Positions 11,591-46,079 of a stretch of DNA of 64,000 nt are shown one piece after another. Every line of letters begins with the position of its first letter. The first letter of the stretch is position 1. The position numbers and the translations under genes are program-made. Origin of the DNA: Mesostigma viride (lineage: Eukaryota; Streptophyta; Mesostigmatophyceae; Mesostigmatales; Mesostigmataceae); assembly GCA_009746045.1 (NCBI GenBank), contig RPFO01000389.1:2067638-2131637 (forward strand). The letters are read 5' to 3'. A model generated the notes under the pieces. That model saw only the letters and a program-made list of their open reading frames with translations. It did no database searches and was not told the origin of the DNA.

Positions 11591-11600
11591 GATAGCTTAC

Positions 11601-19084: not shown

Positions 19085-20934
19085 AAGTACGTTGCCCTAG
19101 AGGCAACCAAGACAAGGGTGGGTGGGTGGGGAGCAAAGAAAGAGGCCGACAAAACCAGCCAGAGCGGCTTTTAGTCGCAAAACCTCCCTTATCCCTAGCT
19201 AACTGACGTCATTAAACCCTTATGTTTAGTGGATGCTAGTAAGACGCTAACCGTACAGACCGGGGGTAGAATATCCCGAATCTGCACGGCTAGTATTAAA
19301 TAATGCGTAGGTTGTTCTTTTCAGGGGCACTGCACCTCACGCCCCGTTCCGCCCGGGTATAATCAACCCAAGCGCGGAACGCACATTTTATTTAATTCAT
19401 TTTTCAACCATGCACTATATTGCATCTACTAATCACAAAAGCTCTAGCCAAACAGCTACGAGTAAACACTGCGACCTATAAGCCGCTCATCCAGCGGCCT
19501 CTTGTTCCCGCATTCACGTATAGAAGAAACTCCGTTCAAAGAACCCCGATTCATGTCCCACGTAGCTCCCACAAAAACCAGCATCTTCATTAAAACAATA
19601 AGTGGAAGCATACATGTGACACTAATTGACATGCCCGGAGGCACGCCGTTCAAGGCCCTTCATGAAGTACGTTGCCCAATCACCCCCGCCCTGGCTTTCC
19701 CTTGAAGCCGCACTCCACCTTGCTCGTTGTCACAAGTGACCGCCCTGCCGCAAAACGGGAGCCCCCCCACATCGGGAGGCGTGTGCCCGGCGGCTGTGGA
19801 TGCATGGCCAGGCCCAAAAAGGCCCAGCGCATTTGCACTGCGATTGCGCACGGCCAGCCTATCATGACCCCTCTCGGGGCCCCGAGTCGGTACCGCTATG
19901 GCCGTCTCCCCATAGACCCGGGGTGCTTCGAGAAAAGACGTGGACCTAGCCCAGGCCCCGCCAGCCCGGATGCCCGAGGCCACAGCCCCAGGCACCTGGC
20001 TGAACGAGAGTCCGTTCAGCCAAGACCGCATTCCCCCCCGAGGTTTCTATGCGTGGGGAAAAAATTTCTAGCTTAGACGCTTTTCCCATCGCCGTCCCCA
20101 GCCCCAACCACCCCCCCTCGGCGGAAGGCAATTGCAAAGTTTGCTGGCCAGCAGCAATTTCCGAAGAAAAAGCCGCAGGCCGCGGACCGAGACACGGGTC
20201 GCCAGTGCCAGCCATCCGGCTCCAACCCGGGGTGCAAGCATCCCCAGGTACGGAGCACCAGCTCGCGCACTGGGCCGACCAAGCGACAGTTGAGCACCTG
20301 TCACGGCATCCGGCCCACCAAAGACCCCAAGCTGGGGAAAAGGTGCGGACCGGAGGTAATCTTTTTCTTTTCTTTTAGTTAACCGGGCGAGGAACTACGC
20401 CTGGCCGGTTAACAACTGGAAGTCTCACCACTGGCCAAGTGGCCAGTGCAACCAGTGCTTTTGGGATTTTGCTCCGCAGCACCCATAGCTGCGGCTGCCG
20501 CCGCAACGACAACGAGCAAAGAAAGAGGCCGACAAAACCAGCCAGAGCGGCTTTTAGTCGCAAAACCTCCCTTATCCCTAGCTAACTGACGTCATTAAAC
20601 CCTTATGTTTAGTGGATGCTAGTAAGACGCTAACCGTACAGACCGGGGGTAGAATATCCCGAATCTGCACGGCTAGTATTAAATAATGCGTAGGTTGTTC
20701 TTTTCAGGGGCACTGCACCTCACGCCCCGTTCCGCCCGGGTATAATCAACCCAAGCGCGGAACGCACATTTTATTTAATTCATTTTTCAACCATGCACTA
20801 TATTGCATCTACTAATCACAAAAGCTCTAGCCAAACAGCTACGAGTAAACACTGCGACCTATAAGCCGCTCATCCAGCGGCCTCTTGTTCCCGCATTCAC
20901 GTATAGAAGAAACTCCGTTCAAAGAACCCCGATT
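19085..20934 (+). mobile_element. Short+long repeat element, family 3, copy 1 (5'-truncated)
   Basis: The short unit lacks its start (19085-19551) and the long unit is complete (19552-20934). Long-unit start: ATGTCCCACGTAGCTCCCAC. End of both: TTCAAAGAACCCCGATT. Segment A contains ACCAGCATCTTCATTAAAAC, clearly related to family 1 and 2 starts. The G4 motif GGGTGGGTGGGTGGGG lies at about 19116-19131 in the short unit. It is inserted into the 108-bp tandem repeat. Segment C (about 19680-20510) has several short frames, none recognised. Confidence 0.8.
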
Positions 20935-21278
20935 CCTTGGGGTCTCGCTGCAGCGAGACCCTTACGTCAAACAAAAACAAATCATTTTTAGGGTGAGCGA
21001 AGAAAGCCCCCTCCCATCTTGCAAACATTAAAAGTCGACATTCGTAGGGGTCTCGCTGCAGCGAGACCCTAACGTCGATACAAAAACAAATCATTTTAAG
21101 GGTGAGAAAAGAAAGACCCCCCCCATCATGAAAACATGAAAAATTGACATTCCTTGGGGTCTCGCTGCAGCGAGACCCTTACGTCAATACAAAAACAAAA
21201 TTCCGAGGGTCTACCCGCAGCGAGACCCTTACGTCCATGCGTGAATTCTATCACAACAATGAAGAACAGTGCACAACA
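20935..21278 (+). repeat. 108-bp tandem repeat, right part (about 3 units)
   Basis: The palindrome GGTCTCGCTGCAGCGAGACC recurs at about 20941, 21049 and 21158 (period 108-109 bp), with a shorter variant (GGGTCTACCCGCAGCGAGACC-like) at 21207. Between palindromes: TTACGTCAA, CAAAAACAAATCATTTT, AGGGTGAGNGAAGAAAG. Confidence 0.9.
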
Positions 21279-23272
21279 ATCGGATTTCTTTGAAAAGAGT
21301 TTCTCGAAGTGAGGCGGGGAATAAGGCCGCTCACGGGAGCCGCCTGGATGGTCGGCTGAACCGGGCGGGTTTGGCAGATGTAACCGGATTTGGCTAATGG
21401 CTGGCGACCTGGAATTGTTAGTAGGGGCAGTGGCCCTATTGTGCTACAATCTCGAAACAATCTTATGCTTAAAATTTGACAGGGCCGGGTTTGTTGAACC
21501 GGTTTGTTGAATGATAATTAGAACCTTTCGGAAAGGGTATTTGATTGGTTGTTGTTTTTGTGGTACGGTAGGTGTCGCTACATTCTCAGGTTGGCGTGTT
21601 AAGTTAAGCTCGGTTGCTGATGTCAGCCCCGTGCTAGGGCAGTTTGACTACTTTGGCGGCGTAGTGACATTGTTGTGGTCTTTTTTCTTGTAAACGTTGG
21701 CTGAGCGCCGACGGCTGAGGCTATGGCGGTACAAGAAGTGCCTCACCAGCCTTGCGCTCAGCATGGGTGCGGGGCTAAAATTTGTTAACCAAATTTCCGG
21801 CATCCGTGATCCCTGGCTGCTTAAGGCGGTTGGGATTCATGGCTGCCACTGGCCCGGAATTAATGTCCGGGTGATCGGGGTTTAAATGCGAAGCGGGGGC
21901 TGATGCATTATTTAATGGCTGGTTTGTTTGAAAGAAACGGCCAGCTGGCCGGGTTGGGCAAGGGCTAGCTTGCTTGATGGTTCCCTACCTGGGGATGCTT
22001 GCGCCTCGGGTTGGGCTGTCGGCAGGCTGGCCTGCCTTTGAGTTGTCTCGTACCTGGAAATGCTTGCATTCCGGGTTGGGCTTGGCTTGAGGGCCGCCGC
22101 GGCTCGGGGGGGTAAAAAATTTAAGTCACCGTTGTGGGACACGGAGCCTCGGCGCAGGAGGCAAGGGCTGAAAACCAACTTGATTTCGTAATCAGTGGTA
22201 TTTCCACTTTTTTGTACGGAAGGAGTGTTTATGTGCTCGGCACTAGGTTGGTTGCTCTTCAAAAAAGTTGTAAACTGGGCGTCGGCTGGAATCAGCGGCG
22301 CCAGTCAGCAGCTTTTGTTTTGACTTTGTGTTCCGCGACAGCACCCCTTAGCGGACCAGAGAAGAGGTCGGCAACGAGGTCAGCGGGGGCCCCCGAGTGG
22401 GGTCAAAAATGCGAGCTGTGTCGATCGACAGTGCATGAATTTTTGTGCATTCACAGTCGCTGGGAATTAAATCTGTTTTCTGGCAACGGAGAGCGCCCAT
22501 CGCGACAGGACAGCTTTTGACGGGAAAGGAAATGGTGCTTCTTTAGCGGACCGGAGGGCCAGGAAGGGGAGGTTGGGTAATCGCGAGCCATGCCTAAGGA
22601 GTTCTTAATAGCGGTTCTGTAACCGCTACCTGTCTGTATGCATCTACTTATTGTTTTAACAAAGATGCTGGTGACTATGGTGAGCAAACGGGTGTATGAA
22701 TCGGATTTCTTTGAAAAGAGTTTCTCGAAGTGAGGCGGGGAATAAGGCCGCTCACGGGAGCCGCCTGGATGGTCGGCTGAACCGGGCGGGTTTGGCAGAT
22801 GTAACCGGATTTGGCTAATGGCTGGCGACCTGGAATTGTTAGTAGGGGCAGTGGCCCTATTGTGCTACAATCTCGAAACAATCTTATGCTTAAAATTTGA
22901 CAGGGCCGGGTTTGTTGAACCGGTTTGTTGAATGATAATTAGAACCTTTCGGAAAGGGTATTTGATTGGTTGTTGTTTTTGTGGTACGGTAGGTGTCGCT
23001 ACATTCTCAGGTTGGCGTGTTAAGTTAAGCTCGGTTGCTGATGTCAGCCCCGTGCTAGGGCAGTTTGACTACTTTGGCGGCGTAGTGACATTGTTGTGGT
23101 CTTTTTTCTTGTCCCACCCACCCACCCTCTTTGGTGGCCTGGTCTGCGCGGGTAATCGCGAGCCATGCCTAAGGAGTTCTTAATAGCGGTTCTGTAACCG
23201 CTACCTGTCTGTATGCATCTACTTATTGTTTTAACAAAGATGCTGGTGACTATGGTGAGCAAACGGGTGTAT
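21279..23272 (-). mobile_element. Short+long repeat element, family 2, copy 2 (inverted)
   Basis: Reverse-complement copy: long unit 21279-22697, short unit 22698-23272. Near-identical to 16801-18796 and 23466-25460, differing by scattered substitutions (for example AAAATTTGAC against AAACTTTAAG context). It forms the left arm of the 4.2-kb inverted repeat. Confidence 0.88.
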
Positions 23273-23465
23273 GAAAACGTTATTCATGCCAGCACCCCCC
23301 CACATTCAATTATTCATGCCATCACCCCCCCACATTTACTTATTCATGCCAGCACCCCCCCACATTGATTTCTTCATGCCAGCACCCCCCCACATGCATT
23401 TATACGTAGCAGCACCCCCCCACATTTATTTATTCATGCCAGCACCCCCCCACATTTAATTATTC
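23273..23465 (+). repeat. 30-bp minisatellite, loop segment
   Basis: Six units of CATGCCAGCA, a run of seven C, then ACATTTATTTATT-type sequence, with one TACGTAGCAGCA variant. Same repeat as at 25461-26815 and beyond. Confidence 0.95.
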
Positions 23466-25460
23466 ATACACCCGTTTGCTCACCATAGTCACCAGCATCT
23501 TTGTTAAAACAATAAGTAGATGCATACAGACAGGTAGCGGTTACAGAACCGCTATTAAGAACTCCTTAGGCATGGCTCGCGATTACCCGCGCAGACCAGG
23601 CCACCAAAGAGGGTGGGTGGGTGGGACAAGAAAAAAGACCACAACAATGTCACTACGCCGCCAAAGTAGTCAAACTGCCCTAGCACGGGGCTGACATCAG
23701 CAACCGAGCTTAACTTAACACGCCAACCTGAGAATGTAGCGACACCTACCGTACCACAAAAACAACAACCAATCAAATACCCTTTCCGAAAGGTTCTAAT
23801 TATCATTCAACAAACCGGTTCAACAAACCCGGCCCTGTCAAACTTTAAGCATAAGATTGTTTCGAGATTGTAGCACAATAGGGCCACTGCCCCTACTAAC
23901 AATTCCAGGTCGCCAGCCATTAGCCAAATCCGGTTACATCTGCCAAACCCGCCCGGTTCAGCCGACCATCCAGGCGGCTCCCGTGAGCGGCCTTATTCCC
24001 CGCCTCACTTCGAGAAACTCTTTTCAAAGAAATCCGATTCATACACCCGTTTGCTCACCATAGTCACCAGCATCTTTGTTAAAACAATAAGTAGATGCAT
24101 ACAGACAGGTAGCGGTTACAGAACCGCTATTAAGAACTCCTTAGGCATGGCTCGCGATTACCCAACCTCCCCTTCCTGGCCCTCCGGTCCGCTAAAGAAG
24201 CACCATTTCCTTTCCCGTCAAAAGCTGTCCTGTCGCGATGGGCGCTCTCCGTTGCCAGAAAACAGATTTAATTCCCAGCGACTGTGAATGCACAAAAACT
24301 CATGCACTGTCGATCGACACAGCTCGCATTTTTGACCCCACTCGGGGCCCCCGCTGACCTCGTTGCCGACCTCTTCTCTGGTCCGCTAAGGGGTGCTGTC
24401 GCGGAACACAAAGTCAAAGCAAAAGCTGCTGACTGGCACCGCTGATTCCAGCCGACGCCCAGTTTACAACTTTTTTGAAGAGCAACCAACCTAGTGCCGA
24501 GCACATAAACACTCCTTCCGTACAAAAAAGTGGAAATACCACTGAATACGAAATCAAGTTGGTTTTCAGCCCTTGCCTCCTGCGCCGAGGCTCCGTGTCC
24601 CACAACGGTGACTTAAATTTTTTACCCCCCCGAGCCGCGGCGGCCCTCAAGCCAAGCCCAACCCGGAATGCAAGCATTTCCAGGTACGAGACAACTCAAA
24701 GGCAGGCCAGCCTGCCGACAGCCCAACCCGAGGCGCAAGCATCCCCAGGTACGGAACCATCAAGCAAGCTAGCCCTTGCCCAACCCGGCCAGCTGGCCGT
24801 TTCTTTCAAACAAACCAGCCATTAAATAATGCATCAGCCCCCGCTTCGCATTTAAACCCCGATCACCCGGACATTAATTCCGGGCCAGTGGCAGCCATGA
24901 ATCCCAACCGCCTTAAGCAGCCAGGGATCATGGATGCCGGAAATTTGGTTAACAAATTTTAGCCCCGCACCCATGCTGAGCGCAAGGCTGGTGAGGCACT
25001 TCTTGTACCGCCATAGCCTCAGCCGTCGGCGCTCAGCCAACGTTTGCAAGAAAAAAGACCACAACAATGTCACTACGCCGCCAAAGTAGTCAAACTGCCC
25101 TAGCACGGGGCTGACATCAGCAACCGAGCTTAACTTAACACGCCAACCTGAGAATGTAGCGACACCTACCGTACCACAAAAACAACAACCAATCAAATAC
25201 CCTTTCCGAAAGGTTCTAATTATCATTCAACAAACCGGTTCAACAAACCCGGCCCTGTCAAACTTTAAGCATAAGATTGTTTCGAGATTGTAGCACAATA
25301 GGGCCACTGCCCCTACTAACAATTCCAGGTCGCCAGCCATTAGCCAAATCCGGTTACATCTGCCAAACCCGCCCGGTTCAGCCGACCATCCAGGCGGCTC
25401 CCGTGAGCGGCCTTATTCCCCGCCTCACTTCGAGAAACTCTTTTCAAAGAAATCCGATTC
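23466..25460 (+). mobile_element. Short+long repeat element, family 2, copy 3
   Basis: Short unit 23466-24040, long unit 24041-25460. Minisatellite lies on both sides: the left flank ends ...AATTATTC and the right flank begins ATTC-ATGCCAGCAA, consistent with a 4-bp ATTC duplication at insertion. Right arm of the inverted repeat. Confidence 0.88.
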
Positions 25461-26815
25461 ATGCCAGCAACCCCCCCACATTTAATTATTCATGCCATCA
25501 CCCCCCCACATTTATTTATTCATGACAGCAGCCCCCCACATTTATTTATTCATGCCAGCACCCCCCCACATTTATTTATTCATGCCAGCACCCCCCAACA
25601 TTTATTTATACGTAGCAGCACCCCCCACATTTAATAATTCATGCCATCACCCCCCCACATTTATTTATTCATGCCAGCAACGCCCCACATGCATTTATAC
25701 GTAGCAGCACCCCCCCACATTTAATTATTCATGCCAGCAGCCCCCCACATTCATTTATTCATGCCAGCAACCCCCCACATGCATTTATACGTAGCAGCAC
25801 CCCCCCACATTTATTTATTCATGCCATCACCCCCCCACATTTATATATTCATGCCAGCAACCCCCCACATTTAACTATTCATGCCAGCAACCCCCCACAT
25901 TTAAGTATTCATGACAGCACCCCCCCACATTTATTTATTCATGCCAGCACCCCCCCACATTTAATTATTCATGCCAGCAGCCCCCAACATTTATTTATAA
26001 GTAGCAGCACCCCCCACATTTAATTATTCATGCCAGCACGCCCCCACATTAAATTATTCATGCCATCACCCCCCCACATTTAATTATTCATGCCATCACC
26101 CCCACACATTTATTTATTCATGCCAGCAACCCCCCACATTTATTTATTCATGCCAGCAACCCCCCACATGCATTTATACGTAGCAGCACCCCCCCGCATT
26201 CATTTATTCATGCCATCACCCCCCCACATTTATTTATTCATGCCAGCACCCCCCCACATTTATTTATTCATGCCAGCAACCCCCACATGCATTTATACGT
26301 AGCAGCACCCCCACACATTTATTTATACGTAGCATCATCCCCCCACATTAATATGTATTCATGCCAGCAACGCCCCACATGCATTTATACGTAGCAGCAC
26401 CCCCCCACCTTTATATATTCATGACAGCACCCCCCCACATTTATTTATTCATGCCAGCAACCCCCCACATGCATTTATACGTAGCAGCACCCCCCCACAT
26501 TTATTTATTCATGCCATCACCCCCCCACATTTTTTTATTCATGCTAGCAACCCCCCACATGCATTTATACGTAGCAGCATCCCCCCACATGTATTTATAC
26601 GTAGCATCACCCCCCCACATTTAATTATTCATGCCAGCAACGCCCCACATGCATTTATACGTAGCAGCACCCCCCCACATTTAATTATTCATGACAGCAG
26701 CCCCCCACATTTATTTATTCATGCCATCACCCCCCCACATGCATTTATACGTAGCAGCATCCCCCCACATTTAATTATTCATACCATCACCCCCCCACAT
26801 TTTTTTATTCATGCC
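25461..26815 (+). repeat. 30-bp minisatellite array segment 2
   Basis: About 45 units. Two unit types alternate irregularly: TTCATGCCAGCA... and TACGTAGCAGCA..., each followed by a 5-8 base C run and ACAT. Homopolymer length varies between units. Long frames encoding PPHIYLFMPAT-type peptides are a by-product of the 30-bp period. Confidence 0.97.
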
Positions 26816-27988
26816 TGTCACGGACGCGAGCTATGTCATCCGGGCGCCCACTATGCACAATACCGGTGACGTGCGCAAGGAATTTGTTTTCTGCGCATTT
26901 TTGACAAAGGCTAGTGACCGGGGGGGGGACACTAGCACTTGCAGCATAAGAGCGGACGAAAGTGCACGTGCGCGCGCGCCGGGCCACTGAGGCACGGCTG
27001 GGCGCGCAGCACTGACGTACTTGAGCGGACGGCAGCACAAGTGCGCAGCGTCGAGAGGATCATACGCGAGTTATAGTGGACAGCTGGAGCTGGAGCTGGA
27101 GCTGGAGCTGGAGCTGGACTGCCGGACTTCAACAGCGCCGAGGCTATTGACAGGCCAGGTGTCTTTGTGGTGTAGAATAGCGGGTCAACGTTATGAGGAC
27201 TGGACAGAAAATGGAAAAGGACAATTTGCGGTGCGGAGCCAGATCGCTGGAATGAATGCGAAATCGCTGGCAGCCCTACAAAGGGATTTCTTCTAGAAAG
27301 GAAAGATTAGAAGCAATGTTTGCTGGGCCACTCACACGCAAGGTGTGAGCGTGCAGATTGTTTGAAGGATATTATGCTTCGACCTTGGTGGTCGTGACTC
27401 AATGCCGGACATTCCCAGGGACAGAAATGCCGGAGCCTCTAGGAGATGAGATCGGCAACAGGGTAGCAATTTAGATTTGTCGGGATGCCTTCCTGTTTTT
27501 GTTGGCATGTGTGGTAGTAAGCCAGGACGGCAACTGGAATGCGGTTTCTGTTTGCATGGTTCAGGCAGCAAGATAGTTTTGGCATTCCTGGCTGGACTGA
27601 CAAGTGTGGCGTGTGTCATGCGTGTGGCATGACGAATGGTTTGGTTCATAGTCGAAGAGGACTCTCACGTAGCGTGTAGTCTCTTCGAGTCTCTCGTTAG
27701 TGGCCTTCGTGTTTCTCCCTTTCCTTGGGAGCAAGGCCGGTAGCATGTCATGGAGCGCTGCCTAACTGCGGGCTCGTGAGCATGGAGTGCATCGATATTG
27801 AGACTATCAACGTGTTGTAATTGTATTAACTTTCTCAATAAATTCCGCATGTGCGGCTTCATCATCAGACTGTGCAAAGTGTGTGTTGTGAAAACATTGT
27901 TCTATAGCAGGGGAGGCAAAAGCATTAAGGTGGTCATCAGGCACGAGGGACAGTTCCTTGTCCTCGGCTGAGAACCCTCCTTTCGTTA
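26816..27988 (+). repeat. 5' LTR core, gypsy 2
   Basis: Starts TGTCACGGACGCGAGC and matches 34913-36084 almost throughout. It contains a (CTGGAG)n hexamer tract near 27085-27115, one unit shorter than in the other LTR, and a polyadenylation signal AATAAA at 27837-27842. The LTR may extend to about 28214, where CCATCGGTCA precedes TGGTGCATGCC; the right copy is cut before this point, so the end cannot be confirmed. Confidence 0.85.
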
Positions 27989-28216
27989 CTCGAAGAGACT
28001 ACCCGGTAGTCTGCTTCCTTCTGTTCGAAGCCAAGACGTTGGCTTTAGTGTTTATCAACCATCAGCAGTACAGGGAACGGCCTGGCTGACAGTGTGTAAA
28101 GGAAGTGTCTTGAGACAGATTTTAAGAAAATAGAACTAGCCAGAATTTGCTGGCTCTTGTCTTTTTCTGGCAGGCTAACCTAGGCTTGTTGGTTCTTGTT
28201 TTGCCCATCGGTCAGC
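27989..28216 (+). repeat. Probable 3' part of the 5' LTR, gypsy 2
   Basis: Follows the LTR core without break and lacks a partner at the right end. It ends CCATCGGTCA-GC just before a TGG that could begin the primer-binding site. No coding signal. Confidence 0.45.
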
Positions 28217-28234
28217 TGGTGCATGCCACTGACG
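28217..28234 (+). promoter_or_regulatory. Candidate primer-binding site, gypsy 2
   Basis: TGGTGCATGCCACTGACG begins with TGG, the complement of a tRNA CCA end, two bases after a CA terminus. The priming tRNA is not identified. Confidence 0.4.
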
Positions 28235-28252
28235 CGAGCGCAGACTCGAGCC

Positions 28253-28561
28253 ATGGCGGATGCAAATAGAGCAGATGCCGACACGTCCGCTCCGGGGTCG
28301 AATGGCGGGATTCCTCCCGCCGTACCCGCAGTGGGTGAGAGTCGCGACCAAGAAGCGCCCCTGAGTATGGTGGCGCTGTTCGCGCAGATGCAAGCGCAGA
28401 TGCAGCAACAGTCGCAACAGTTGCAGCAGCAACTGGCGCTGCAGATGCGGGAAGTGACCGACAGATTGGTGGCCGTAGAGGGTCGTCATCTGCAGTCCAC
28501 ACCATGGGACGGGCTGTCAGAAGTTTTACCGTTTTGTGCCACAGGCTCGCATTTTTATTAG
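28253..28561 (+). pseudogene. Gag N-terminus, gypsy 2 (truncated)
   Basis: ATG at 28253 (MADANRADADTSAPGSNGG), just after the PBS candidate. A Gln-rich helix (FAQMQAQMQQQSQQLQQQL) and MREVTDRLVAVEGRH resemble the coiled-coil start of algal gypsy gag proteins. The frame ends after STPWDGLSEV, where unrelated sequence begins. Capsid and any zinc knuckle are missing. Confidence 0.6.
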
Positions 28562-28948
28562 TGCAGGCTTGGGCCACTTGCTCGTGTTTGTATTATCGTT
28601 TATTCTGCCGTCGGGACATTGACGGAATTATTACGTAGGATATGCCGTGATTTACCTTGCCGGCACAATTCTGTGTGAGCTACGTCAGTGCCTTGCTTTA
28701 TTTTCAGTGTCGAATTTCAGATTTTCAGTGTCGAATCTCAGTACGGAAGATACTGTGGACTTTTGTACCGTCCGTAGGTCTTACCATATATTCTGAGTTG
28801 TCTGGTATGACGCGCCGCATGGACTTTGGCAATTTTTGCCAGACGGACCAGTTGTGGCGCCGCGTCACTTCCCTGGTGACAGATGTAGACGAAAATAAGT
28901 TGAGCCTGCGCCGACCTTAGAGAAAGAAACCTAATATAAGTGGTACAG
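28515..28948. other. Foreign 0.43-kb segment replacing gag, unknown
   Basis: AT-richer than the flanking retroelement coding sequence, no recognisable protein or RNA. It contains a short tandem duplication (TTTTCAGTGTCGAAT twice, about 28700-28740). It is bounded on the right by the half palindromic composite. The origin of this filler is unclear. Confidence 0.4.
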
Positions 28949-29301
28949 TATTTAACGTAACTAAAACCTGTTGCACCTTGGAGGTCAGGGGTTCGAATCC
29001 TTACTGAGGCAGCTCCGGCGCATTTAGTGGTGCGTGCTCAGCGGCCTAGGCGGATGTCTCGGGCTCTTCGTCCCCCCTCCACGAGGCCAGGTTTTAGTTA
29101 CGTTAAATAGTGCCGGAACCTTTTGCCGCCTGAGGCAAATCGGGCCGGAACACTATTTTGCCCGGAATAACCACTTCCGAGCACCCAAGTTAATTCGGCC
29201 GAATTAACTTGGGTGCTCGGAAGTGGTTATTCCGGGCAAAATAGTGTTCCGGCCCGATTTGCCTCAGGCGGCAAAAGGTTCCGGCACTATTTAACGTAAC
29301 T
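28949..29301. mobile_element. Half palindromic composite: partial P, spacer S', full palindrome
   Basis: The last 14 bp of a palindrome arm (TATTTAACGTAACT), then the 132-bp B-box spacer (28963-29095, CAGGGGTTCGAATCCTTA), then a perfect 206-bp palindrome (29096-29301, centre between 29198 and 29199). Related to the right half of 765-1646. Both palindrome arms carry the CGGGCCGGAACAC subfamily variant. Confidence 0.88.
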
Positions 29302-30110
29302 CAGCGGGCGTGCGTAGTGCCTAGGGCACCCACTGTCACCTCATATCCGGATGGTGAGCCAGCAATGGCGTTTCAGGCGCAGGGGCACGGGGAGCCCCTG
29401 AGCAACGTGGTCTACAGTACTGACCATGAATTGGTCGTGAAACTGGACAGCGGGGCCCAGCCACTCGTCATCAGTGCTCGGCTGGCCCAGTTGCTCAACC
29501 TAACCAGGGAGAATGGCGGGCTGCGGGACAGTCATGTGTCCGTGGCGGGCTGGCAGGGCCCTGCCGCTAAACCCTTTGCCATGACTGCGGTCCAGGTAAT
29601 GGTCATCCTCAACCCGCTCAGGCCATCCGACATGGCCTGCATCCCTGTGAATGCCCTTGTGACCGAGCAGTCATCGTATGACGTGCTGGTCGGCATGGAG
29701 GTCATGTTTCCCATGCGGCTCGAGGTACGCATGTGGGAAGGCCGCGCGGTGTACATCGTTGACAGAGACGGTGACGCCATGCGCCAAGCAAGCATCCCGG
29801 TGAGCTGCTACAGCTCGGACACTGGGGCAGTGCGTGTCTCGACGGTCAACCGGGTCGAGGCTGGCTCGCACGACGCGGTGGTGGAGGTACGGATGGGGGA
29901 GGTCACGGCAGCTGGGGGGGCTGTGCGTGATAAGCATCGGCCGTGCATCCCAACAGCGCTGGTGGGACGGGCCTCATTGCAGAGCACGTGGGCGGCGCGA
30001 CAGCAGCCGCAAGCGCGGCAGGCCCTTTTGCGTCAGCACGTCACCAACGCGGTGCGGCAGCAACAACTCTCTCATCTCCCGCGGCAATCGCAGTCCCAAG
30101 TGGCTGTCGC
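29302..30110 (+). CDS. Aspartic protease domain of pol, gypsy 2
   Basis: Open from just after the palindrome. Retropepsin features: VVKLDSGAQPLVISARLAQL (catalytic DSG), the VSVAGWQGPA turn, and YDVLVGMEVMFPM as the second hydrophobic-GXE block. The frame runs on to a stop at 30183, but the methyltransferase lies in another frame, so a frame change falls somewhere in the Ala/Gln-rich linker 29930-30110. Confidence 0.8.
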
Positions 30111-30164
30111 GACAACGAAGGTAACTTCTGTGCCGATGTTGTGGCAGAGTCGCGGGTCTTGTCC

Positions 30165-31110
30165 GAAGGGGTTGTATTGCTAGAATTGTTTGCTGGGATG
30201 GGAGGGGGGCTGGCTGGCTTTCTCGCTGCAGGCGGTACGTGCCACACGTTGATCGCCGTAGAGCCGTCTCCTACCGCTCGGGCAGTGTATAGGCATCACT
30301 GTGCCCAGCTGTCTGCCCTGTATCCATCTCAGTTTCCTCCGTCTGCGTGGACAGATCCGTTTGGGGAGTGCCCTCAGGATATCCGTGCCATTGGGGAGGT
30401 TCATGTGCGAGGCCTTTTGAGGCGGCACAAGAGGATAGACCTCGTCCTCGCGGGCTGGGAATGTCAAGGGTTGAGTCAGGCCGGCGTAGGACGCGGGCTT
30501 GCGGATCCTAGGAGCGGGTTGTTTTGGGATCTGCTTCGAGTCGTTGGACTCTTGCAGCAGCTGCAGGACCAGCCACTAGCGTATCTTTTTGAGAACGTGG
30601 TGGCCGACGACAGCCCTCACGAGGTAGTGAGGAAGGACTGGGCCCAGATCGTGGACATCTTAGGGGCCCAGTCACGTGCGACAATGCAGGATTGGGCGGG
30701 CTCACCCACAGGTACCGCGCATTCTGGACCAACCTTGCACTCACCACCACCATCCAGGCAGTGGTAGATGCGATCACACGACAGCACGACGGCATGCCCG
30801 CGGAGGTGGCGCTGCCACCACATTTGGTCACGCAGCGTGTAGATGTCGCCGATCGGCACCCTTACGCACCCGTCAATCACGTAGGTAAGCCTATGTGCGC
30901 TCTTCCCACCTTGGTTAGTTACCAGGGGTCATCGGCCTACAGGGACCGGGGCAAGGGTTTGGTATGGGACACCGGTACGGGTTTGTTGGTGCAGCCGCCC
31001 GCTGAGTTTCGGGAGGTGAGCATGGGGTTCCATGTGGGGGCGTCCGCCGCTGAGGGGGTTTTAGAGGCCACTAGGTGGTCTCTCGTTGGGCAAGCCATGT
31101 CAGCCTTCCA
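30165..31110 (+). pseudogene. C5-cytosine DNA methyltransferase domain inside pol
   Basis: C5-MTase motifs appear in order: motif I LLELFAGMGGGLAGF (about 30177), motif IV GWECQGLSQAG with the catalytic Cys codon at 30462-30464, GRGLADPRSGLFWDLLRVV, motif VI FENVV at 30588-30602, motif VIII HRYRAFWTN (about 30705), motif IX-like LPTLVSYQGSSAYRD, REVSMGFHVG, and the motif X-like WSLVGQAMSAF ending near 31110. The order is I to X without permutation. The usual PCQ is ECQ. A one-base frameshift in GGGGCCC (30662-30668) separates motifs I-VI from VIII-X. Role: transfer of methyl from SAM to cytosine C5, possibly on the element's own cDNA or integration site (inference). It is embedded between protease and RT as in charophyte DNMT retroelements. 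Confidence 0.85.
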
Positions 31111-31600
31111 GGTTGGGTATGTTCTGCGGGCCGCAATGCAAGTGCGCCAGGGTGGGGGAGATATCCCCACACCGCCACCGCCTGTCAGTGCCCACGCGGC
31201 TGGTGTCCGGCCAACAGCGTCCGGCGGCACTGGGTCGCCATGGAGATCGCGGCTGCTTCAACTATGGAGCGTTATCCTCATGACGTCCTTGTTGTCCAGC
31301 ACGGTGTTCGCTGGAGCGCCCACCCTGCAGCAATCGGTCGGTCGCGCAGTCCGTGCCATTCAGCAGGTGAGCGTCACACCCGGTGTAGCCGCATTTTCCC
31401 TTTTCCACGATGCCGCTGTCCGGGGGCCTTGTCTCGACAGTAGGAGTGCCGCAGTCGCAGATCCTGCTGCCTCTCACATATGGGCCATAGGTGAGCACCT
31501 CACCGCCACGCAACGCAAGGCTATGGAGCACTGGTTGCATTCTGCACGCTCAGTTTCGCTTTCAGCAGTGAAGAACTAGGGTGCTACAACGGGGGCTGCA
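31111..31600 (+). pseudogene. Linker between methyltransferase and RT
   Basis: Pro-rich then a hydrophobic stretch (LLQLWSVILMTSLLSSTVF), then LTATQRKAMEHWLHSAR and, after a frame change near 31550, FAFSSEELGCYNGGCMG, the usual approach to a gypsy RT. The hydrophobic run is too poorly supported to call a membrane segment. Confidence 0.5.
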
Positions 31601-33477
31601 TGGGGGTCCCACTAGATACGGATCAGCCCTTATTCAGGCGGCAGCATAGGCTGAGCTTGGCTGAGCTGGAATTCGTAGATGCTAACTGTCGAGAGCTAGA
31701 GGCAGCTGGGATCATCCGCGCTTCATCCTCCAGTTATGCAGCTGCCACGGTGGTCGCACCCAAGAAGGATACCATCACAGGCGAGTGGACAGGTATGCGC
31801 ATGGCCACTGACCTGCGTCAGCTGAACGCGCACACTCCTGTTGATAGGTACCCCATGCCTCGGGTCGATGATGTTTTGGATAAAATATCTCCCCAGGTCA
31901 AGTATGTGTCGTCGCTAGATTTGCGTAGCGGCTTCCATCAGATCAAGGTCGTAGAGGCAGATCAGCGCAAGCTGGCCTTTTGGGGTGGGACCCGTCTGTA
32001 CGAGTGGGTTCGCATGCCATTCGGACATCGCAACGCTAGTGCGGTGTTCCAACGTGCCATGGACCAGGTGCTGGCAGGGTTGCCATTTGCAGCCTGCTAC
32101 ATAGACGATGTCATTGTCTTTAGCGAGACATTTGACCAGCACTTAGCTCACCTCGATCAGGTTCGGATCGCCCTAGATAAGGCCAACCTGCGGCTGCACC
32201 CTGAAAAGTGCAAGTTCGCCCAACAGACCATAGGGTTTCTTGGCCATCAGATTGTACCAGGTGGCCGGACCCCTGAGGCAGCCAAAGTGGAAGCCATCAG
32301 CAACGCCGCAGTGCCCATCGACATCTCGGGGGTGCGCGCGTATCTCGGGCTAGCTGGCTATTATCGAGGATATATTCAGAATTTCAGCACCAAAGTCAAA
32401 CCCCTGACTGAGTTGTTGAAGAAGGGCAATGTCTGGGCGTGGGGTCCGGCTCAGCAGCGAGCCATCGATACCATCAAACAGGAACTGACTGCCGCTCCTA
32501 TCCTACGCGCCCCCGACTATGCTCTGCCCTTCATTCTTTACACCGATTGGTCCAAGGTAGGCCTAGGGGCTGTGCTAGCACAAAAGGACGATGCGGGGCG
32601 CGAGCATGTTATCGCGTACGCTAGTCGGAGTAACAACTCTGCCGAGAGTCGGTACTCTTCCTACGAGGGGGAAGCGTTAGCCGTTGTGTGGGCCATCAAG
32701 CACTTCAGGCCATATCTCTTTGGGCGGGTGTTCACACTTGTCACTGATCACCAGCCCTTATTGTGGTTGATGACCAGCGACAAACTCACGGGTAAGCTGG
32801 CCCGGTGGGCAATGATCATTCAGGAGTACCACCTGACAATCGTCCATCGGCCAGGTGTGGATCACTCCAACGCGGACGTCCTGTCCAGGTATGCTCTACC
32901 AACCACTGTTGACAACACTGGTGCGCGGGCCCTAGGGGCCGAGAGCTCGCCTGGGTCTGTGGTTTTTGTTAATGCTGCAGGCTTCGCTGACGCCGACGCC
33001 GAGGCAGACTGGCGCGCAGTCGAGTATACAGTCGCAGACTTTGCGGCAAGCTGCAATGCAGTTCACCCTTCTCCCTTCACCCCTGCCGCTGGCCTCCTCG
33101 CGTTGGAGGAAGGTAATTCTCCGTCCTTTGACATTGACAATACCTTGGCACGATACCTAGCACTCCAGGTGGTGTTGGTTGGCCATCTCACAGTGGAATG
33201 CAACATGGGTGATGTGTGGCTCGATGGGCGTGTGTTGGAGCAGGTCCAAGGGATAGCTCTCACCCCAACCCCTGTTGATTGGTCCTCAGCCCAGCGTGAC
33301 GCTGAGTTGAATAGGGTGCAACATAGGGCGGTCACCTACTCGTGGGATGCCGGGGTCCTCCACAAAATGATCGGCAAGCGCAAAGTGGTGGTGCCGCCGC
33401 CTCACAAGCGGGTCGCCATCGTCCAGCAAGCCATGAGCGGTATGGCCACCTGGGTGGTAACCGCACTTTGGCGCTAG
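31600..33477 (+). CDS. Reverse transcriptase and RNase H, gypsy 2
   Basis: A 625-residue open frame. RT blocks: VVAPKKDTITGEWTGMRMAT, RYPMPRVDDVLDKI, SSLDLRSGFHQI (motif A Asp), FWGGTRLYEWVRMPFGHRNA, catalytic YIDD at 32098-32109, FLGHQIVPGG. RNase H follows: FILYTDWSKVGLGAVLAQKD, YEGEALAVVWAIKHFRPYLF, VTDHQPLLWLM, HSNADVLSRY. All catalytic acidic residues (RT D, DD; RNase H D, E, D) are visible. The frame then enters the integrase approach (VLHKMIGKRKVVVPPPHKR) and ends in a frameshift at 33440-33477. Confidence 0.93.
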   Translation: MGVPLDTDQPLFRRQHRLSLAELEFVDANCRELEAAGIIRASSSSYAAATVVAPKKDTITGEWTGMRMATDLRQLNAHTPVDRYPMPRVDDVLDKISPQVKYVSSLDLRSGFHQIKVVEADQRKLAFWGGTRLYEWVRMPFGHRNASAVFQRAMDQVLAGLPFAACYIDDVIVFSETFDQHLAHLDQVRIALDKANLRLHPEKCKFAQQTIGFLGHQIVPGGRTPEAAKVEAISNAAVPIDISGVRAYLGLAGYYRGYIQNFSTKVKPLTELLKKGNVWAWGPAQQRAIDTIKQELTAAPILRAPDYALPFILYTDWSKVGLGAVLAQKDDAGREHVIAYASRSNNSAESRYSSYEGEALAVVWAIKHFRPYLFGRVFTLVTDHQPLLWLMTSDKLTGKLARWAMIIQEYHLTIVHRPGVDHSNADVLSRYALPTTVDNTGARALGAESSPGSVVFVNAAGFADADAEADWRAVEYTVADFAASCNAVHPSPFTPAAGLLALEEGNSPSFDIDNTLARYLALQVVLVGHLTVECNMGDVWLDGRVLEQVQGIALTPTPVDWSSAQRDAELNRVQHRAVTYSWDAGVLHKMIGKRKVVVPPPHKRVAIVQQAMSGMATWVVTALWR

Positions 33478-34450
33478 TGCGCGCCTCTTATTGGTGGAAC
33501 GGCATGCGTGCCACAGTCGCGCAGGTCGTCGCTAGCTGCGCGCAGTGTGCCCGGGTGAAGGCCCGGTTCAATGTGGACCACGATGCGAAAGAATTGATGA
33601 GCCTACCCATCAGAGGGCTCTTCTACCGCTGGCACGTAGACCTGTGTGGGCCCTTTGATGAAAGTGCAGATGGCCACAAGTATGTCATGGTGTGTGTCGA
33701 AAGTTTTAGCAAGTGGGTCGAGCTCATCCCCATTGCTGACAAGCAGGCCGCCACCACCGCCAAGCACTTCGCCGACATCATCGCCAGGTTTGGCGCCCCC
33801 GCGGAGGTGGTCACCGACCAGGGCGGGGAGTTTCGTGGGGAATTTCAGGAATTGTTGGATGCATGTCTCATTGATCACCGTCGCACTTCTCGGAGCATCC
33901 TCAGGCCAATGGTTTGGCTGAGAGATTGGTGCAGACTGTCAAGCAGGCTTTGCGCAAGTGGAGCCTGCAGTCAGCATCATTCACTATGTGGGATCGTGAA
34001 CTGGCGTGGATAGCCATGGGTTACCGAATGTCACCCCAGGAGTCGCTCGCCTGTTTCTCCCCGTATTTCCTGTTGTTTGGGCGCGCACCCTTGCTCCCCA
34101 CGGAGGCGCAGAGTGCACACCCCACCCCTATGGCGTTTGACAACGCCAGTCAGTTTCTGGCTGAGGTGACCGCACGGGCGGCTACTTTCCGCAAGGTTAT
34201 GCCCATCGCCATGAACAACTTGTTCATCGCCCAGCACCGAGATACCCTGCGCTACGCTCAGCGCCGGGGGGGCGCTTACATGGCCCGTCAGCTGCATTTT
34301 CGTCCGGGGCAGTTCGTCTTTCTCCGCACGCAGCTGACCGACACTCTTGACGTGACTGCGGGGCCGACCATCTTGCGGATCGTCGCCATCAAGCCATCTG
34401 GGGTCGCCATTTGGAGGGCGTCGACGGCAGTCGCACCACCGATAACGTAA
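33440..34450 (+). pseudogene. Integrase, gypsy 2 (frameshifted)
   Basis: An HHCC zinc domain (GHLGGNRTLALVRASYWWNG...CAQCARVK) and a core with all three catalytic acids: HVDLCGPFDES (D at 33638), VVTDQGGEFRG (D at 33815) and, after a one-base frameshift near 33890, SEHPQANGLAERLVQTV (E at 33920). The C-terminal part has SPYFLLFGRAPLLP and FRPGQFVFLRTQL, a GPY/F-like domain. A further frame change near 34430 leads into the PHD region. It catalyses cDNA strand transfer, giving 5-bp target duplications. Confidence 0.88.
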
Positions 34451-34743
34451 GCAACCTCAGTCCGTGTTCGTTGCCCAACTTATTGCCTGACCTCGCCCCG
34501 CACACGGCCAGGCGGGTCAAGGACGCACAGTGTCAGGTTTGCCATCGCGTAGACCAGGGGGATACCATGTTGCTGTGTGATCACTGTAATTGTGGGTGGC
34601 ACATGCACTGCTTGCAGCCAGCGCTCACCACCGTGCCAGCGGGCCAGTGGTTTTGCCCAGTTTGTGTCGCTGCCCGTTTCGCAACCAGTAGCGTCACCAT
34701 TTCCTTAGCTGCTGTGGTGTTGGCACGGTCGCTGGCCATGTGA
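34420..34743 (+). CDS. PHD finger at the C-terminus of pol
   Basis: C4HC3 zinc finger at 34531-34664: CQVC, then MLLCDHC, GWHMHC, and FCPVC. The conserved Trp lies two residues before the first HC pair and there is an acidic GDTMLLCD stretch. Spacing fits a canonical PHD finger, a histone H3 tail reader in most characterised cases. It lies directly after the integrase GPY/F-like region, where chromoviruses carry a chromodomain, and so may steer integration to a chromatin state (inference). The modification read cannot be told from sequence. The frame ends with a stop at 34741-34743. Confidence 0.85.
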   Translation, partial: VDGSRTTDNVSNLSPCSLPNLLPDLAPHTARRVKDAQCQVCHRVDQGDTMLLCDHCNCGWHMHCLQPALTTVPAGQWFCPVCVAARFATSSVTISLAAVVLARSLAM

Positions 34744-34756
34744 GGAGCCATGAGAG

Positions 34757-34771
34757 CCAGCGAGGGGGGAA
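34757..34771 (+). promoter_or_regulatory. Polypurine tract candidate, gypsy 2
   Basis: AGCGAGGGGGGAATC lies 142 bp upstream of the recognised LTR core. If this is the true PPT, the LTR starts near 34775 (TGGGACAGG) and 34772-34911 is its first part. That would also explain why a copy of this segment follows the right LTR. Confidence 0.45.
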
Positions 34772-34912
34772 TCATGGGACAGGTCCTCGCCCACCCCACC
34801 GGGCATGCAGTTAAGGCAGGCACGTCAGCTCAGCTCATTTGGGTTTTACCAAAGCTGAGCATGGCCAGCCGCCATGGTGGCGCCGGAGATTGTGGTACGC
34901 AGACGCGACAGC

Positions 34913-36084
34913 TGTCACGGACGCGAGCTATGTCATCCGGGCGCCCACTATGCACAAGACCGGTGACGTGCGCAAGGAATTTGTTTTCTGCGCATTTTCG
35001 ACAAAGGCTAGTGACCGGGGGGGGACACTAGCACTTGCAGCATAAGAGCGGACGAAAGTGCACGTGCGCGCGCGCCGGGCCAGGCACGGCTGGGCGCGCA
35101 GCACTGACGTACTTGAGCGGACGGCAGCACAAGTGCGCAGCGTCGAGAGGATCATACGCGAGTTAGTGGACAGCTGGAGCTGGAGCTGGAGCTGGAGCTG
35201 GAGCTGGAGCTGGACTGCTGGACTTCAACAGCGCCGAGGCTATTGACAGGCCAGGTGTCTTTGTGGTGTAGAATAGCGGGTCAACGTTATGAGGACTGGA
35301 CAGAAAATGGAAAAGGACAATTTGCGGTGCGGAGCCAGATCGCTGGAATGAATGCGAAATCGCTGGCAGCCCTACAAAGGGATTTCTTCTAGAAAGGAAA
35401 GATTAGAAGCAATGTTTGCTGGGCCACTCACACGCAAGGTGTGAGCGTGCAGATTGTTTGAAGGATATTATGCTTCGACCTTGGTGGTCGTGACTAAATG
35501 CCGGACATTCCCAGGGACAGAAATGCCGGAGCCTCTAGGAGATGAGATCGGCAACAGGGTAGCAATTTAGATTTGTCGGGATGCCTTCCTGTTTTTGTTG
35601 GCATGTGTGGTAGTAAGCCAGGACGGCAACTGGAATGCGGTTTCTGTTTGCATGGTTCAGGCAGCAAGATAGTTTTGGCATTCCTGGCTGGACTGACAAG
35701 TGTGGCGTGTGTCATGCGTGTGGCATGACGAATGGTTTGGTTCATAGTCGAAGAGGACTCTCACGTAGCGTGTAGTCTCTTCGAGTCTCTCGTTAGTGGC
35801 CTTCGTGTTTCTCCCTTTCCTTGGGAGCAAGGCCGGTAGCATGTCATGGAGCGCTGCCTAACTGCGGGCTCGTGAGCATGGAGTGCATCGATATTGAGAC
35901 TATCAACGTGTTGTAATTGTATTAACTTTCTCAATAAATTCCGCATGTGCGGCTTCATCATCAGACTGTGCAAAGTGTGTGTTGTGAAAACATTGTTCTA
36001 TAGCAGGGGAGGCAAAAGCATTAAGGTGGTCATCAGGCACGAGGGACAGTTCCTTGTCCTCGGCTGAGAACCCTCCTTTCGTTA
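34913..36084 (+). repeat. 3' LTR core, gypsy 2
   Basis: Starts TGTCACGGACGCGAGC; matches 26816-27988 with few differences (one extra CTGGAG unit, a 4-base gap at GGCCAGGCACGG). It ends abruptly at TTTCGTTA and lacks the ~226-bp tail seen after the left copy. Confidence 0.88.
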
Positions 36085-36223
36085 ATCATGGGACAGGTCC
36101 TCGCCCACCCCACCGGGCATGCAGTTAAGGCAGGCACGTCAGCTCAGCTCATTTGGGTTTTACCAAAGCTGAGCATGGCCAGCCGCCATGGTAGCGCCGG
36201 AGATTGTGGTACGCAGACGCGAC
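36085..36223 (+). repeat. Extra copy of pre-LTR segment after the 3' LTR
   Basis: ATCATGGGACAGGTCCTCGC to ...ACGCAGACGCGAC duplicates 34772-34910 with one change (GGTAGCGCC against GGTGGCGCC). The duplicate is followed directly by minisatellite beginning ATGCC. Confidence 0.9.
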
Positions 36224-37170
36224 ATGCCAGCAACCCCCCACATTCATTTATTCATGCCAGCAACCCCCCACATCCATGTATACGTAGCAGCACCCCCCGG
36301 CATTCATTTATTCATGCCAGCACGCCCCCACATTTAATTATTCATGACAGCACCCCCCCACATTTATTTATTCATGCCAGCAACCCCCCACATGTATTGA
36401 TACGTAGCAGCACCCCCCCACATGTATTTATACGTAGCATCACCCCCCCACATTTATTTATTCATGCCAGCAACGCCCAACATGCATTTATACGTAGCAG
36501 CACCCCCCCACATTTAATTATTCATGACAGCACCCCCCCACATTTATTTATTCATGCCAGCAACCCCCCACATGTATTGATATGTAGCAGCACCCCCCCA
36601 CATTTATTTATTCATGCCAGCAACGCCCCACATTTATTTATTCATGCCAGCAACCCCCCACATTTATTTATTCATGCCAGCAACCCCCACATTTAATTAT
36701 TCATGACAGCACCCCCCACATTCATTTATTCATGCCAGCAACCCCCAACATTTAATTATTCATGCCAGCACGCCCCCACATTTATTTATTCATGCCAGCA
36801 CCCCCCCACATGCATTTATTCATGCCAGCAACCCCCCACATGCATTTATACGTAGCAGCACCCCCCCACATTTATTTATTCATGCCATCACCCCCCACAT
36901 TTATTTATTCATGCCAGCAACCCCCCCACATTTAATTATTCATGCCAGCAACCCCCCACATTTAATTATTCATGACAGCACCCCCCACATTTATTTATTC
37001 ATGCCAGCACCCCCCCACATTTATTTATTCATGCCAGCAACCCCCCACATTTATTTATACGTAGCAGCACCCCCCACATTTAATAATTCATGCCATCACC
37101 CCCCCACATTAAATTATTCATGCCATCACCCCCCCACATTAAATTATTCATGCCATCACCCCCCCACCCC
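36224..37170 (+). repeat. 30-bp minisatellite array segment 3
   Basis: About 31 units of the same repeat. It ends with three TAAATTATTCATGCCATCA-type units (from 37081) that also occur in the higher-order repeat at 40643, 42317 and 53392. Confidence 0.97.
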
Positions 37171-46031: not shown

Positions 46032-46079
46032 GGCTGGCAACCACAGACACAAAACACCAAAAAGAGGTGTTAGCAGTGC

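What the first reader, a model, noticed from the sequence alone, without database searches (positions are those of the whole stretch)
26816..36223. Retrotransposon carrying both a DNA-methylation writer and a chromatin reader (C5 methyltransferase + PHD finger)
Seen: one plus-strand pol with protease, then C5-MTase motifs I, IV, VI, VIII, IX and X in order, then RT/RNase H, integrase, and a C4HC3 PHD finger after the integrase. Known: DNMT capture by retrotransposons is reported for charophytes and dinoflagellates; PHD fingers usually read the histone H3 tail. Inference: the element could place itself in a chosen chromatin state through the PHD finger and methylate its own DNA, either hiding from or working with host silencing. 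Methyltransferase plus PHD in one pol is the strongest candidate system in the window.
Basis: partly seen in the sequence, partly recalled or inferred. Interest (0 to 1): 0.92.

Follow-up and report, generated by a model that had tools for sequence, protein, structure and literature searches.

The report
Retrotransposon with methyltransferase and PHD finger
An LTR retrotransposon, probably in a green alga, really does carry both a DNA-methylating enzyme and a histone-reading finger, and scars in its many copies suggest that it inserts itself from a closed DNA circle instead of the usual linear DNA.

Summary
Confirmed and extended. The window holds a Ty3/Gypsy-type element (26816-36224, 4-bp target duplication): protease, C5-methyltransferase, RT/RNase H, integrase, PHD finger. 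This copy is damaged (six frame changes, insertion in gag). Elsewhere in the 439.9-Mb host genome six copies of a sister family carry the same order as one 1642-aa frame ending in the PHD (3 differences in 4926 sites). Methyltransferase and PHD are conserved between families while synonymous sites are near saturation.

In the sister family A|B has 9 forms in 26 places, some with PBS or PPT remnants; B-GC-A keeps its GC in 20 of 21. One locus holds a [B-GC-A]-pol-[B-GC-A] molecule joined between another element's A and B, with one outer 4-bp duplication. Best reading: integration from an end-joined circle cut at an internal palindrome. Closest known: KnitGypsy-Dnmt3 of Klebsormidium (same repeat layout; no PHD mentioned in its main text). 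Roles of methyltransferase and PHD remain inference.

The parts
26812..26815 (.). left copy of the target-site duplication TGCC
26816..27987 (+). repeat A1, starts TGTCACGG; 98.6% identical to A2
27988..28001 (+). primer-binding place (inferred): first letters after A1; pieces of it stand at A|B junctions of other copies
28223..28507 (+). N-terminal remnant of gag (right border approximate)
   Evidence: 99.7% match in C1107
28945..29304 (.). MITE-like palindromic insertion in the gag region (also at 764-1647)
29422..29703 (+). aspartic protease
   Evidence: Pfam PF13650
30180..30599 (+). C5-methyltransferase, N-terminal half (motifs I, IV with ECQ, VI with ENV; motif numbers recalled)
   Evidence: Pfam PF00145 6.1e-12
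30668..31126 (+). C5-methyltransferase, C-terminal half (motifs VIII to X; numbers recalled), in another frame
   Evidence: (67% aa identity to the intact C133 copy)
31759..32253 (+). reverse transcriptase
   Evidence: Pfam PF00078
32515..32829 (+). RNase H
   Evidence: Pfam PF17917
33432..33887 (+). integrase: H2C2 zinc finger and rve core
   Evidence: Pfam PF17921, PF00665
33888..34447 (+). integrase C-terminal part, other frame
   Evidence: 88% aa identity to the C133 copy
34531..34665 (+). PHD finger
   Evidence: Pfam PF00628 4.8e-10; PDB BAZ2B PHD 7.9e-15
34757..34769 (+). polypurine tract directly before B1
   Evidence: same place in family 2
34770..34910 (+). repeat B1 (ends GCGACA)
34911..34912 (+). 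GC spacer; GACA-GC-TGTC is a palindrome, the proposed integrase site
34913..36083 (+). repeat A2
36084..36224 (+). repeat B2; A2|B2 is the proposed end-joined junction
   Evidence: this place is in the list
36225..36228 (.). right copy of the target-site duplication TGCC

Best explanation
A damaged member of an otherwise young group of Ty3/Gypsy-type retrotransposons that carry a Dnmt3-like methyltransferase between protease and reverse transcriptase and a PHD finger behind the integrase. Proposed cycle: RNA runs from A1 to A2; ordinary reverse transcription (PBS behind A, PPT before B) gives linear cDNA with LTR = [B-GC-A]; host end joining closes it into a circle with an A|B scar; the integrase cuts the circle at one internal palindrome GACA-GC-TGTC, where left and right element ends abut over 2 bp, and inserts it with a 4-bp duplication, giving A-I-B-GC-A-B (or A-I-B from a one-LTR circle). 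Shown by sequence: anatomy, junction variation, templated GC junction, duplications, the trapped linear form, conservation of methyltransferase and PHD. Inferred: RNA ends, circle, integrase cut. Inferred more weakly: the PHD, of the type lacking the tryptophan of H3K4me3 readers, tethers the integrase to chromatin with unmethylated H3K4, as the chromodomain does in chromoviruses; the methyltransferase methylates CG in the element's own DNA.
For: Architecture in line in six copies and in C133. Split repeats in window and family 2. A prediction noted, when four junctions in two forms had been seen, then tested on more: A|B in 9 forms among 26 family-2 places (those four included), with read-on into the PBS (ATC, ATCC, ATCCA) and one PPT remnant; 16 of 100 listed (109 found) family-1/3 junctions not modal, with PBS read-on of 8, 13 and 14 nt. 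Templated junction: GC in 19 of 20, and with free letters on both sides, so that losses would show, in 20 of 21; families 1/3 GC in 99 of 100 listed (238 found; anchors without free letters). Five variant junctions read in context: three in full forms, two in solo A-B with duplications GTGT and AGCT. C133: [B-GC-A]-pol-[B-GC-A], repeats 100% identical, between A' and B' of a small element, outer duplication GGGG. A 4-bp duplication in all 13 insertions whose two ends could be read. Truncated copies end in B (C224, C1813). Codon comparison: PHD pN 0.16, pS 0.78; methyltransferase 0.22, 0.73. Precedent: HIV-1 and foamy-virus integrases cut the palindromic LTR-LTR junction (abstracts).
Against: No circle, transcript or protein was observed. 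In families 1/3, 84 of 100 listed A|B junctions share one form, and so do all five further ones read, so joining is often precise or many copies share one junction by descent. B-GC-A matches outnumber A|B matches there (238 to 109); in contigs C1-C1469, 64 of 99 listed B-GC-A have no pattern A|B behind them; the five of these 64 that I read are split forms whose A end differs from my pattern, the other 59 were not read. A-I-B copies could come from B1 x B2 recombination and solo A-B from A1 x A2 recombination. One templated junction in each group (C800, C623) reads TGCAGC. The PBS does not look like a tRNA 3' end (no TGG), so the primer is unknown. Motif IV has ECQ instead of PCQ; activity untested. 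The Dnmt3 assignment rests on weak profile hits (4e-6), not a tree. Window and C133 repeats are 94-95% identical while synonymous sites of their coding parts are near saturation: families have exchanged parts, which the model does not need or explain.
Confidence: 0.75

Rival explanations
1. DIRS/PAT-like replication: the internal B-A junction acts as a bridge that restores the outer ends on a circular cDNA, and an integrase has replaced the tyrosine recombinase.
For: The A-I-B-A-B layout is that of DIRS-type elements, as the KnitGypsy paper says for its own element.
Against: PPT and PBS positions fit ordinary LTR priming; A|B junctions carry PBS and PPT remnants as an end-joined circle should; C133 shows the ordinary linear form; 4-bp duplications.
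Confidence: 0.12
2. Ordinary LTR elements whose split repeats come from recombination or rearrangement after insertion.
For: A-I-B and solo A-B forms would arise that way.
Against: The same split form with intact 4-bp duplications recurs at six independent places, with repeats up to 100% identical, and the outer ends are A-left and B-right in all 13 readable insertions (in C133 those of the outer element). Among 99 B-GC-A matches in contigs C1-C1469 only two pairs lie at the distance of plain LTRs: C133, inside a composite, and C111, whose 5' one follows the pol end and PPT of another unit.
Confidence: 0.03
3. The methyltransferase serves against the host: it methylates or binds nucleic acid to mask cDNA or to perturb host silencing, and the PHD is only a protein-protein arm.
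For: Copies are very young and CpG is little depleted in the element (o/e 0.78-0.81) compared with the chromovirus in the window (0.34), so there is no clear scar of heavy self-methylation.
Against: Age and sequence differ between the elements compared (one each), so CpG ratios decide nothing; retrotransposon DNMTs are reported to methylate CG de novo (PMC5890265, abstract) and CHH/CHG methylation is reported on KnitGypsy-Dnmt3 copies (section 9).
Confidence: 0.3
4. The window copy alone: a chance pile-up of unrelated genes.
For: The window copy is broken into frames.
Against: Same order in intact frames of two other families.
Confidence: 0.005

Closest known systems
KnitGypsy-Dnmt3 of Klebsormidium nitens (de Mendoza 2018, PMC5890265; abstract, section 9, part 1 of 3 of section 5 and search passages read)
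   Same: Gypsy-type pol with a Dnmt3-related methyltransferase in the Pol frame; figure legend says the repeats are laid out as in DIRS elements; alga; enzyme under purifying selection
   Different: No PHD is mentioned (0 occurrences in the main text; figures and supplements not seen); no explanation of the repeat layout in the parts read; sequence relation to ours not tested
Chromoviruses (Ty3/Gypsy with chromodomain)
   Same: A histone-reader domain directly behind the integrase
   Different: Here a PHD, no chromodomain hit; a Gypsy with a chromodomain lies in the same window at 45-52 kb
DIRS/PAT/Ngaro elements and SymbioDIRS-Dnmt3
   Same: Split direct repeats A-coding-B-A-B; SymbioDIRS also carries Dnmt3
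   Different: DDE integrase, 4-bp duplications, ordinary PPT/PBS positions; no tyrosine recombinase hit
Ginger1-9_HM DNA transposon (PMC2836005, passages read)
   Same: Gypsy-type integrase domain with Ulp1 and PHD at the C-terminus
   Different: A DNA transposon; no reverse transcriptase or methyltransferase (recalled for the group)
Retroviral 2-LTR circles cut by integrase (HIV-1 PMC1905944, foamy virus PMC1180852; abstracts read)
   Same: Integrase cutting of a palindromic joined-end junction
   Different: There the junction is the joined LTR ends; here the palindrome is inside the LTR and inherited

Membership tests
Ty3/Gypsy LTR retrotransposon | pol order RT-RNase H-integrase with aspartic protease upstream | tested here: met
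   RT-RH-IN
Ty3/Gypsy LTR retrotransposon | TG...CA ends and 4-6 bp duplication | tested here: met
   13 insertions with both ends readable, all 4 bp
Ty3/Gypsy LTR retrotransposon | two plain LTRs in the integrated form | tested here: not met
   split repeats; a plain [B-GC-A] pair only inside a composite (C133) and a tandem (C111)
Ty3/Gypsy LTR retrotransposon | RT falls in the Gypsy clade of a tree | not tested
   no reference set at hand
KnitGypsy-Dnmt3 type | Dnmt inside a Gypsy pol | tested here: met
KnitGypsy-Dnmt3 type | DIRS-like repeat layout | tested here: met
   against the legend text
KnitGypsy-Dnmt3 type | common descent with the Klebsormidium element | not tested
   its sequence was not at hand
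Chromovirus | chromodomain behind integrase | tested here: not met
   PHD instead
DIRS-type element | tyrosine recombinase | tested here: not met
   rve integrase; no recombinase among the Pfam hits
Dnmt3 | motif order I to X not permuted | tested here: met
   unlike the DRM arrangement; motif numbers recalled
Dnmt3 | PC motif IV with catalytic Cys | tested here: inconclusive
   Cys kept, Pro replaced by Glu (ECQ) in the three families read
Dnmt3 | closest to Dnmt3 in a tree | not tested
   only profile hits: DNMT3A 4e-6, 4onj (plant DRM, name recalled; listed as 'DNA methyltransferase') 1.9e-5, HhaI 3.4e-5

The most novel reading that the evidence does not exclude
A lineage of LTR retrotransposons whose normal route of integration is from end-joined DNA circles, opened by a DDE integrase at a heritable palindrome inside the LTR, so that every integrated copy is a rotated form of its own cDNA; combined in one pol with a DNA-methylation writer and a histone reader that replaces the chromodomain. 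The DIRS-like layout of KnitGypsy-Dnmt3 would then have the same cause, and the circle route would be an old trait of a group of algal Gypsy elements.
Probability: 0.6. Interest if true: 0.92.

Novelty: new variant of a known kind. Interest (0 to 1): 0.82.

Why it matters
It puts writing and reading of epigenetic marks into one mobile polyprotein, conserved between two families and present in copies so young that six pol genes differ at 3 of 4926 sites. And it offers natural, countable evidence on an old question: whether a retroviral-type integrase can use joined-end circles as its true substrate. Retroviral integrases cut such junctions (abstracts of PMC1905944, PMC1180852), but the linear form is held to be the precursor (recalled). 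Here 135 A|B junctions (26 + 109) stand in one genome, at least 28 of the 126 listed with altered joins, and can be read by anyone.

Tried and rejected
Assembly artefact for the palindrome at 29096-29301: rejected, it is part of a repeat also found at 764-1647. Structure of the methyltransferase: AlphaFold2 with two sequences gave mean pLDDT 46.6, not used; no fold search was made. Relatives in viral contigs: none for the RT piece or the N-terminal methyltransferase piece (close relatives only). Gathering-threshold Rfam scan and bacterial-code tRNA scan of the window: nothing. CpG depletion as a sign of self-methylation: inconclusive. Phylogeny of the methyltransferase against host enzymes: not made, no eukaryote references at hand. 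Genome-wide count of the PHD (asked), a host marker gene PF00016 and three other searches (asked once): not completed. Host identity: only inferred; size and piece number of G000 (439.9 Mb, 2243) lie near the published Mesostigma viride assembly (441.8 Mb, 2363 scaffolds; PMC6947507, passages), in which 5mC was found (section 14; section 8 also read).

Claims that something is not in print rest on the listings of the ten paper searches and the papers named; no title or abstract start shown told of a Gypsy with both methyltransferase and PHD, or of an LTR element integrating from circles at an internal site. Panganiban and Temin's circle model for retroviruses is recalled, not looked up.


Full report
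WHAT IS THERE. The element runs from 26816 (TGTCACGG) to 36224 (GCGACA), one base further than given, and is flanked by TGCC on both sides inside a 30-bp tandem repeat; with one TGCC taken away the repeat unit reads whole. Pfam finds, in order on the plus strand, an aspartic protease, the first half of a C5-methyltransferase, reverse transcriptase, RNase H, integrase zinc finger and core, and a PHD finger. The second half of the methyltransferase is seen by alignment to an intact relative. This copy is damaged: from protease to PHD the pieces change frame six times, each time in the same direction, and only the start of gag is left before a stretch that holds a MITE-like palindrome also present at 764-1647.

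OTHER COPIES. A whole-genome search with the methyltransferase family gave 127 matches, a lower bound, including other methyltransferases. I read 21 places at length, and later five variant junctions, five A ends and the ends of C111. Of the 21, nineteen belong to a sister family ('family 2', about 71-75% DNA identity to the window over most shared parts), one (C1107) is a partial copy of the window's own family at 98-100% identity, and one (C133) is 'family 3'. Six family-2 copies (C2100, C1613, C777, C1579, C1690a, C1837) have pol as one open frame of 1642 aa, methyltransferase first and PHD last, directly before the stop. They differ at 3 of 4926 sites. Of the 19 family-2 places, the 11 with the whole integrase query stretch (in C113 interrupted by an insertion) all have the PHD; the other 8 break off or are deleted before it. 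C133 has protease to PHD in one frame. C1107 has the methyltransferase motifs and the start of RT in one 763-aa open frame. So the pairing is a trait of the group. The repeats of window and C133 are 94-95% identical, yet synonymous sites of their coding pieces are saturated in four of seven and high in the rest: the families have exchanged repeats or coding parts.

SELECTION. Comparing codons of family 2 and family 3: PHD 75% aa identity, pS 0.78, pN 0.16; methyltransferase 67%, pS 0.73, pN 0.22; integrase pN 0.18; RT-RNase H pN 0.11; the two linkers pN 0.38-0.39; the tail behind the PHD pN 0.56. Synonymous change is near saturation, so ratios are rough, but PHD and methyltransferase are held as the known enzymes are, and unlike the linkers.

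Motif order is unpermuted. The best solved relatives by profile are DNMT3A (4e-6), a plant DRM (4onj, 1.9e-5; name recalled) and HhaI (3.4e-5): Dnmt3-like, but weakly, and no tree was made. Motif IV is ECQ instead of PCQ with the cysteine kept. Among the PHD's best solved relatives are BAZ2B, CHD4, PHF12, WSTF, KDM5-type proteins and ATXR5; at the place of the tryptophan of H3K4me3 readers (recalled) it has glycine, as BAZ2B has (alignment). That BAZ2B, KDM5 PHD1 and ATXR5 read unmethylated H3K4 is recalled. The PHD stands where chromoviruses have a chromodomain; a chromodomain Gypsy lies in the same window.

THE SPLIT REPEATS. In the window and in family 2 the order is A1-internal-B1-GC-A2-B2. 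A purine tract lies directly before B1, and A1 is followed by a fixed stretch in the place of a primer-binding site. By ordinary reverse transcription the LTR would therefore be [B-GC-A]. The B-GC-A junction is a palindrome with the core GACAGCTGTC (arm 5 in three cases, 8 in family 2), and the outer ends of the integrated element are its two halves. From this I wrote down a prediction (four junctions in two forms had been seen by then): A|B is a join made anew in each cycle and should vary, B-GC-A is copied and should not. In family 2, 26 A|B junctions (0 in the reversed-pattern control; those four included) show 14 without extra letters, A in 4, ATCC in 2, and one each of ATCCA, ATC, AA, G, AAG and a run of T with a PPT remnant; the internal region begins ATCCACACAG, so ATC, ATCC and ATCCA are read-on into the PBS. 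One more, with A cut short by 138 letters, lies outside the pattern (C1690c). B-GC-A is exactly GC in 19 of 20 (modal share against 14 of 26, Fisher p 0.0026, not corrected for shared descent). Since that pattern would miss losses, I repeated it with free letters on both sides: 21 places, the spacer GC with no letter lost in 20, TGCAGC in one (C800). In families 1/3, 109 A|B junctions were found and 100 listed: 84 modal, 16 other in 11 forms, among them 8, 13 and 14 nt of the PBS and single G as from the PPT; B-GC-A was found 238 times, 100 listed, 99 GC and one TGCAGC (C623; anchors without free letters). Five variant A|B places were read: C998, C1468 and C1413 lie in full forms with B1-GC-A2 upstream; C2045 and C1857 are solo A-B with duplications GTGT and AGCT.

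A CHECK AGAINST THE MODEL. B-GC-A outnumbers A|B in families 1/3, which plain LTR copies would explain. In contigs C1-C1469, where both lists are complete, 35 of 99 B-GC-A are followed by a pattern A|B at the expected distance and 64 are not. Of the 64 I read five; all five are A2|B2 of the split form, with the modal join, in a subfamily whose A end my pattern did not fit. The other 59 were not read. Only two pairs of B-GC-A lie 8-13 kb apart on one strand: C133 (below) and C111, where the 5' one follows the PHD end and PPT of a further unit and the 3' one is followed by A|B, so that C111 is a tandem.

A TRAPPED INTERMEDIATE. At C133 a family-3 element with 1282-bp, 100% identical repeats of the form [B-GC-A] stands between the A' end and the B' start of a small element (A'1 12190-13231, B'1 13539-13628, A'2 13631-14672, B'2 25402-25491; two letters at the left border are shared), and the whole is flanked by GGGG. 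The simplest reading is that two cDNAs were joined end to end into one circle, which was then inserted through the A'/B' palindrome. It shows the linear form that the model requires.

FORMS AND DUPLICATIONS. All 13 insertions with both ends readable have 4-bp duplications: full form in the window (TGCC), C2100 (CTTG), C1613 (GGCC), C2156 (AACG, internally deleted), C2200 (AGTT), C446 (GCAA, with a further insertion inside B2); A-I-B in C1579 (TACT), C1835 (CGGA), and, internally deleted, C224 (ACTC) and C1813 (TACA); solo A-B in C2045 and C1857; the C133 composite. At the other places read at length one or both ends were missing or truncated; the places and C111 were not checked for duplications. 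In C224 and C1813 the internal part breaks off and is joined to B lacking its first 5 and 6 letters, as expected if truncated cDNA was circularised; recombination between B1 and B2 could make A-I-B, but would need a separate deletion for these two.

MECHANISM. Cutting a circle at GACA-GC-TGTC on both strands behind CA gives at once two processed ends with 2-nt overhangs; a 2-bp spacer suits a single cut of a circle, whereas joined linear ends with 2 nt each would give 4 (inference). HIV-1 and foamy-virus integrases cut their palindromic LTR-LTR junctions (abstracts of PMC1905944 and PMC1180852). KnitGypsy-Dnmt3 has, by its figure legend, the same repeat layout (PMC5890265 section 9), so the route may be shared; not tested.

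WHAT IS NOT SHOWN. No transcript, protein, methylation, circle or host identity was observed. The role of PHD and methyltransferase is inferred from family knowledge. The host is probably a green alga; the assembly size suggests Mesostigma viride, unproven.

Noticed in passing
45111-51939 (-): A Gypsy element with a chromodomain behind the integrase and no methyltransferase hit in the pieces scanned; CpG observed/expected 0.34 against about 0.8 in the methyltransferase elements.
   Followed up: partly
G000 contigs C35, C47, C64, C79, C340, C389, C815 (L002-L008) and C1517, C1809, C1935: A C5-methyltransferase in a 364-aa frame at identical score in ten places; six of the seven contigs whose length was shown are 22-44 kb long. 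Perhaps part of a DNA virus, integrated or free.
   Followed up: no
G000:C133:12190-14672 and 25402-25491 (L053, L052, L050, L049): A small element (A' about 1.04 kb, internal part about 0.3 kb, B' about 0.09 kb) with the same GACA-GC-TGTC ends and little room for coding: likely non-autonomous and moved by the coding elements.
   Followed up: partly
window repeats and L049-L051: Repeats 94-95% identical between window and C133, while synonymous sites of their coding parts are near saturation: repeats or coding parts have been exchanged between families.
   Followed up: no
G000:C111, about 10770-21740 and beyond (L064, L065): Two or more units in tandem sharing one [B-GC-A] between them.
   Followed up: partly
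G000:C800:10548-10587 and G000:C623:136802-136831: In two different families the one exception to the GC spacer is the same: TGCAGC between B and A.
   Followed up: no
22386-24352 and around: Perfectly complementary inverted arms of 890 nt with 187 nt between them, and further nested arms.
   Followed up: no
59547-64000: A 170-bp satellite, 26 copies at 99% matches; long arrays of a 30-bp repeat elsewhere in the window.
   Followed up: no
27988-28001: The primer-binding place does not begin with TGG as for a tRNA 3' end; 13-14 nt of it are retained at some A|B junctions. The primer is unknown.
   Followed up: no
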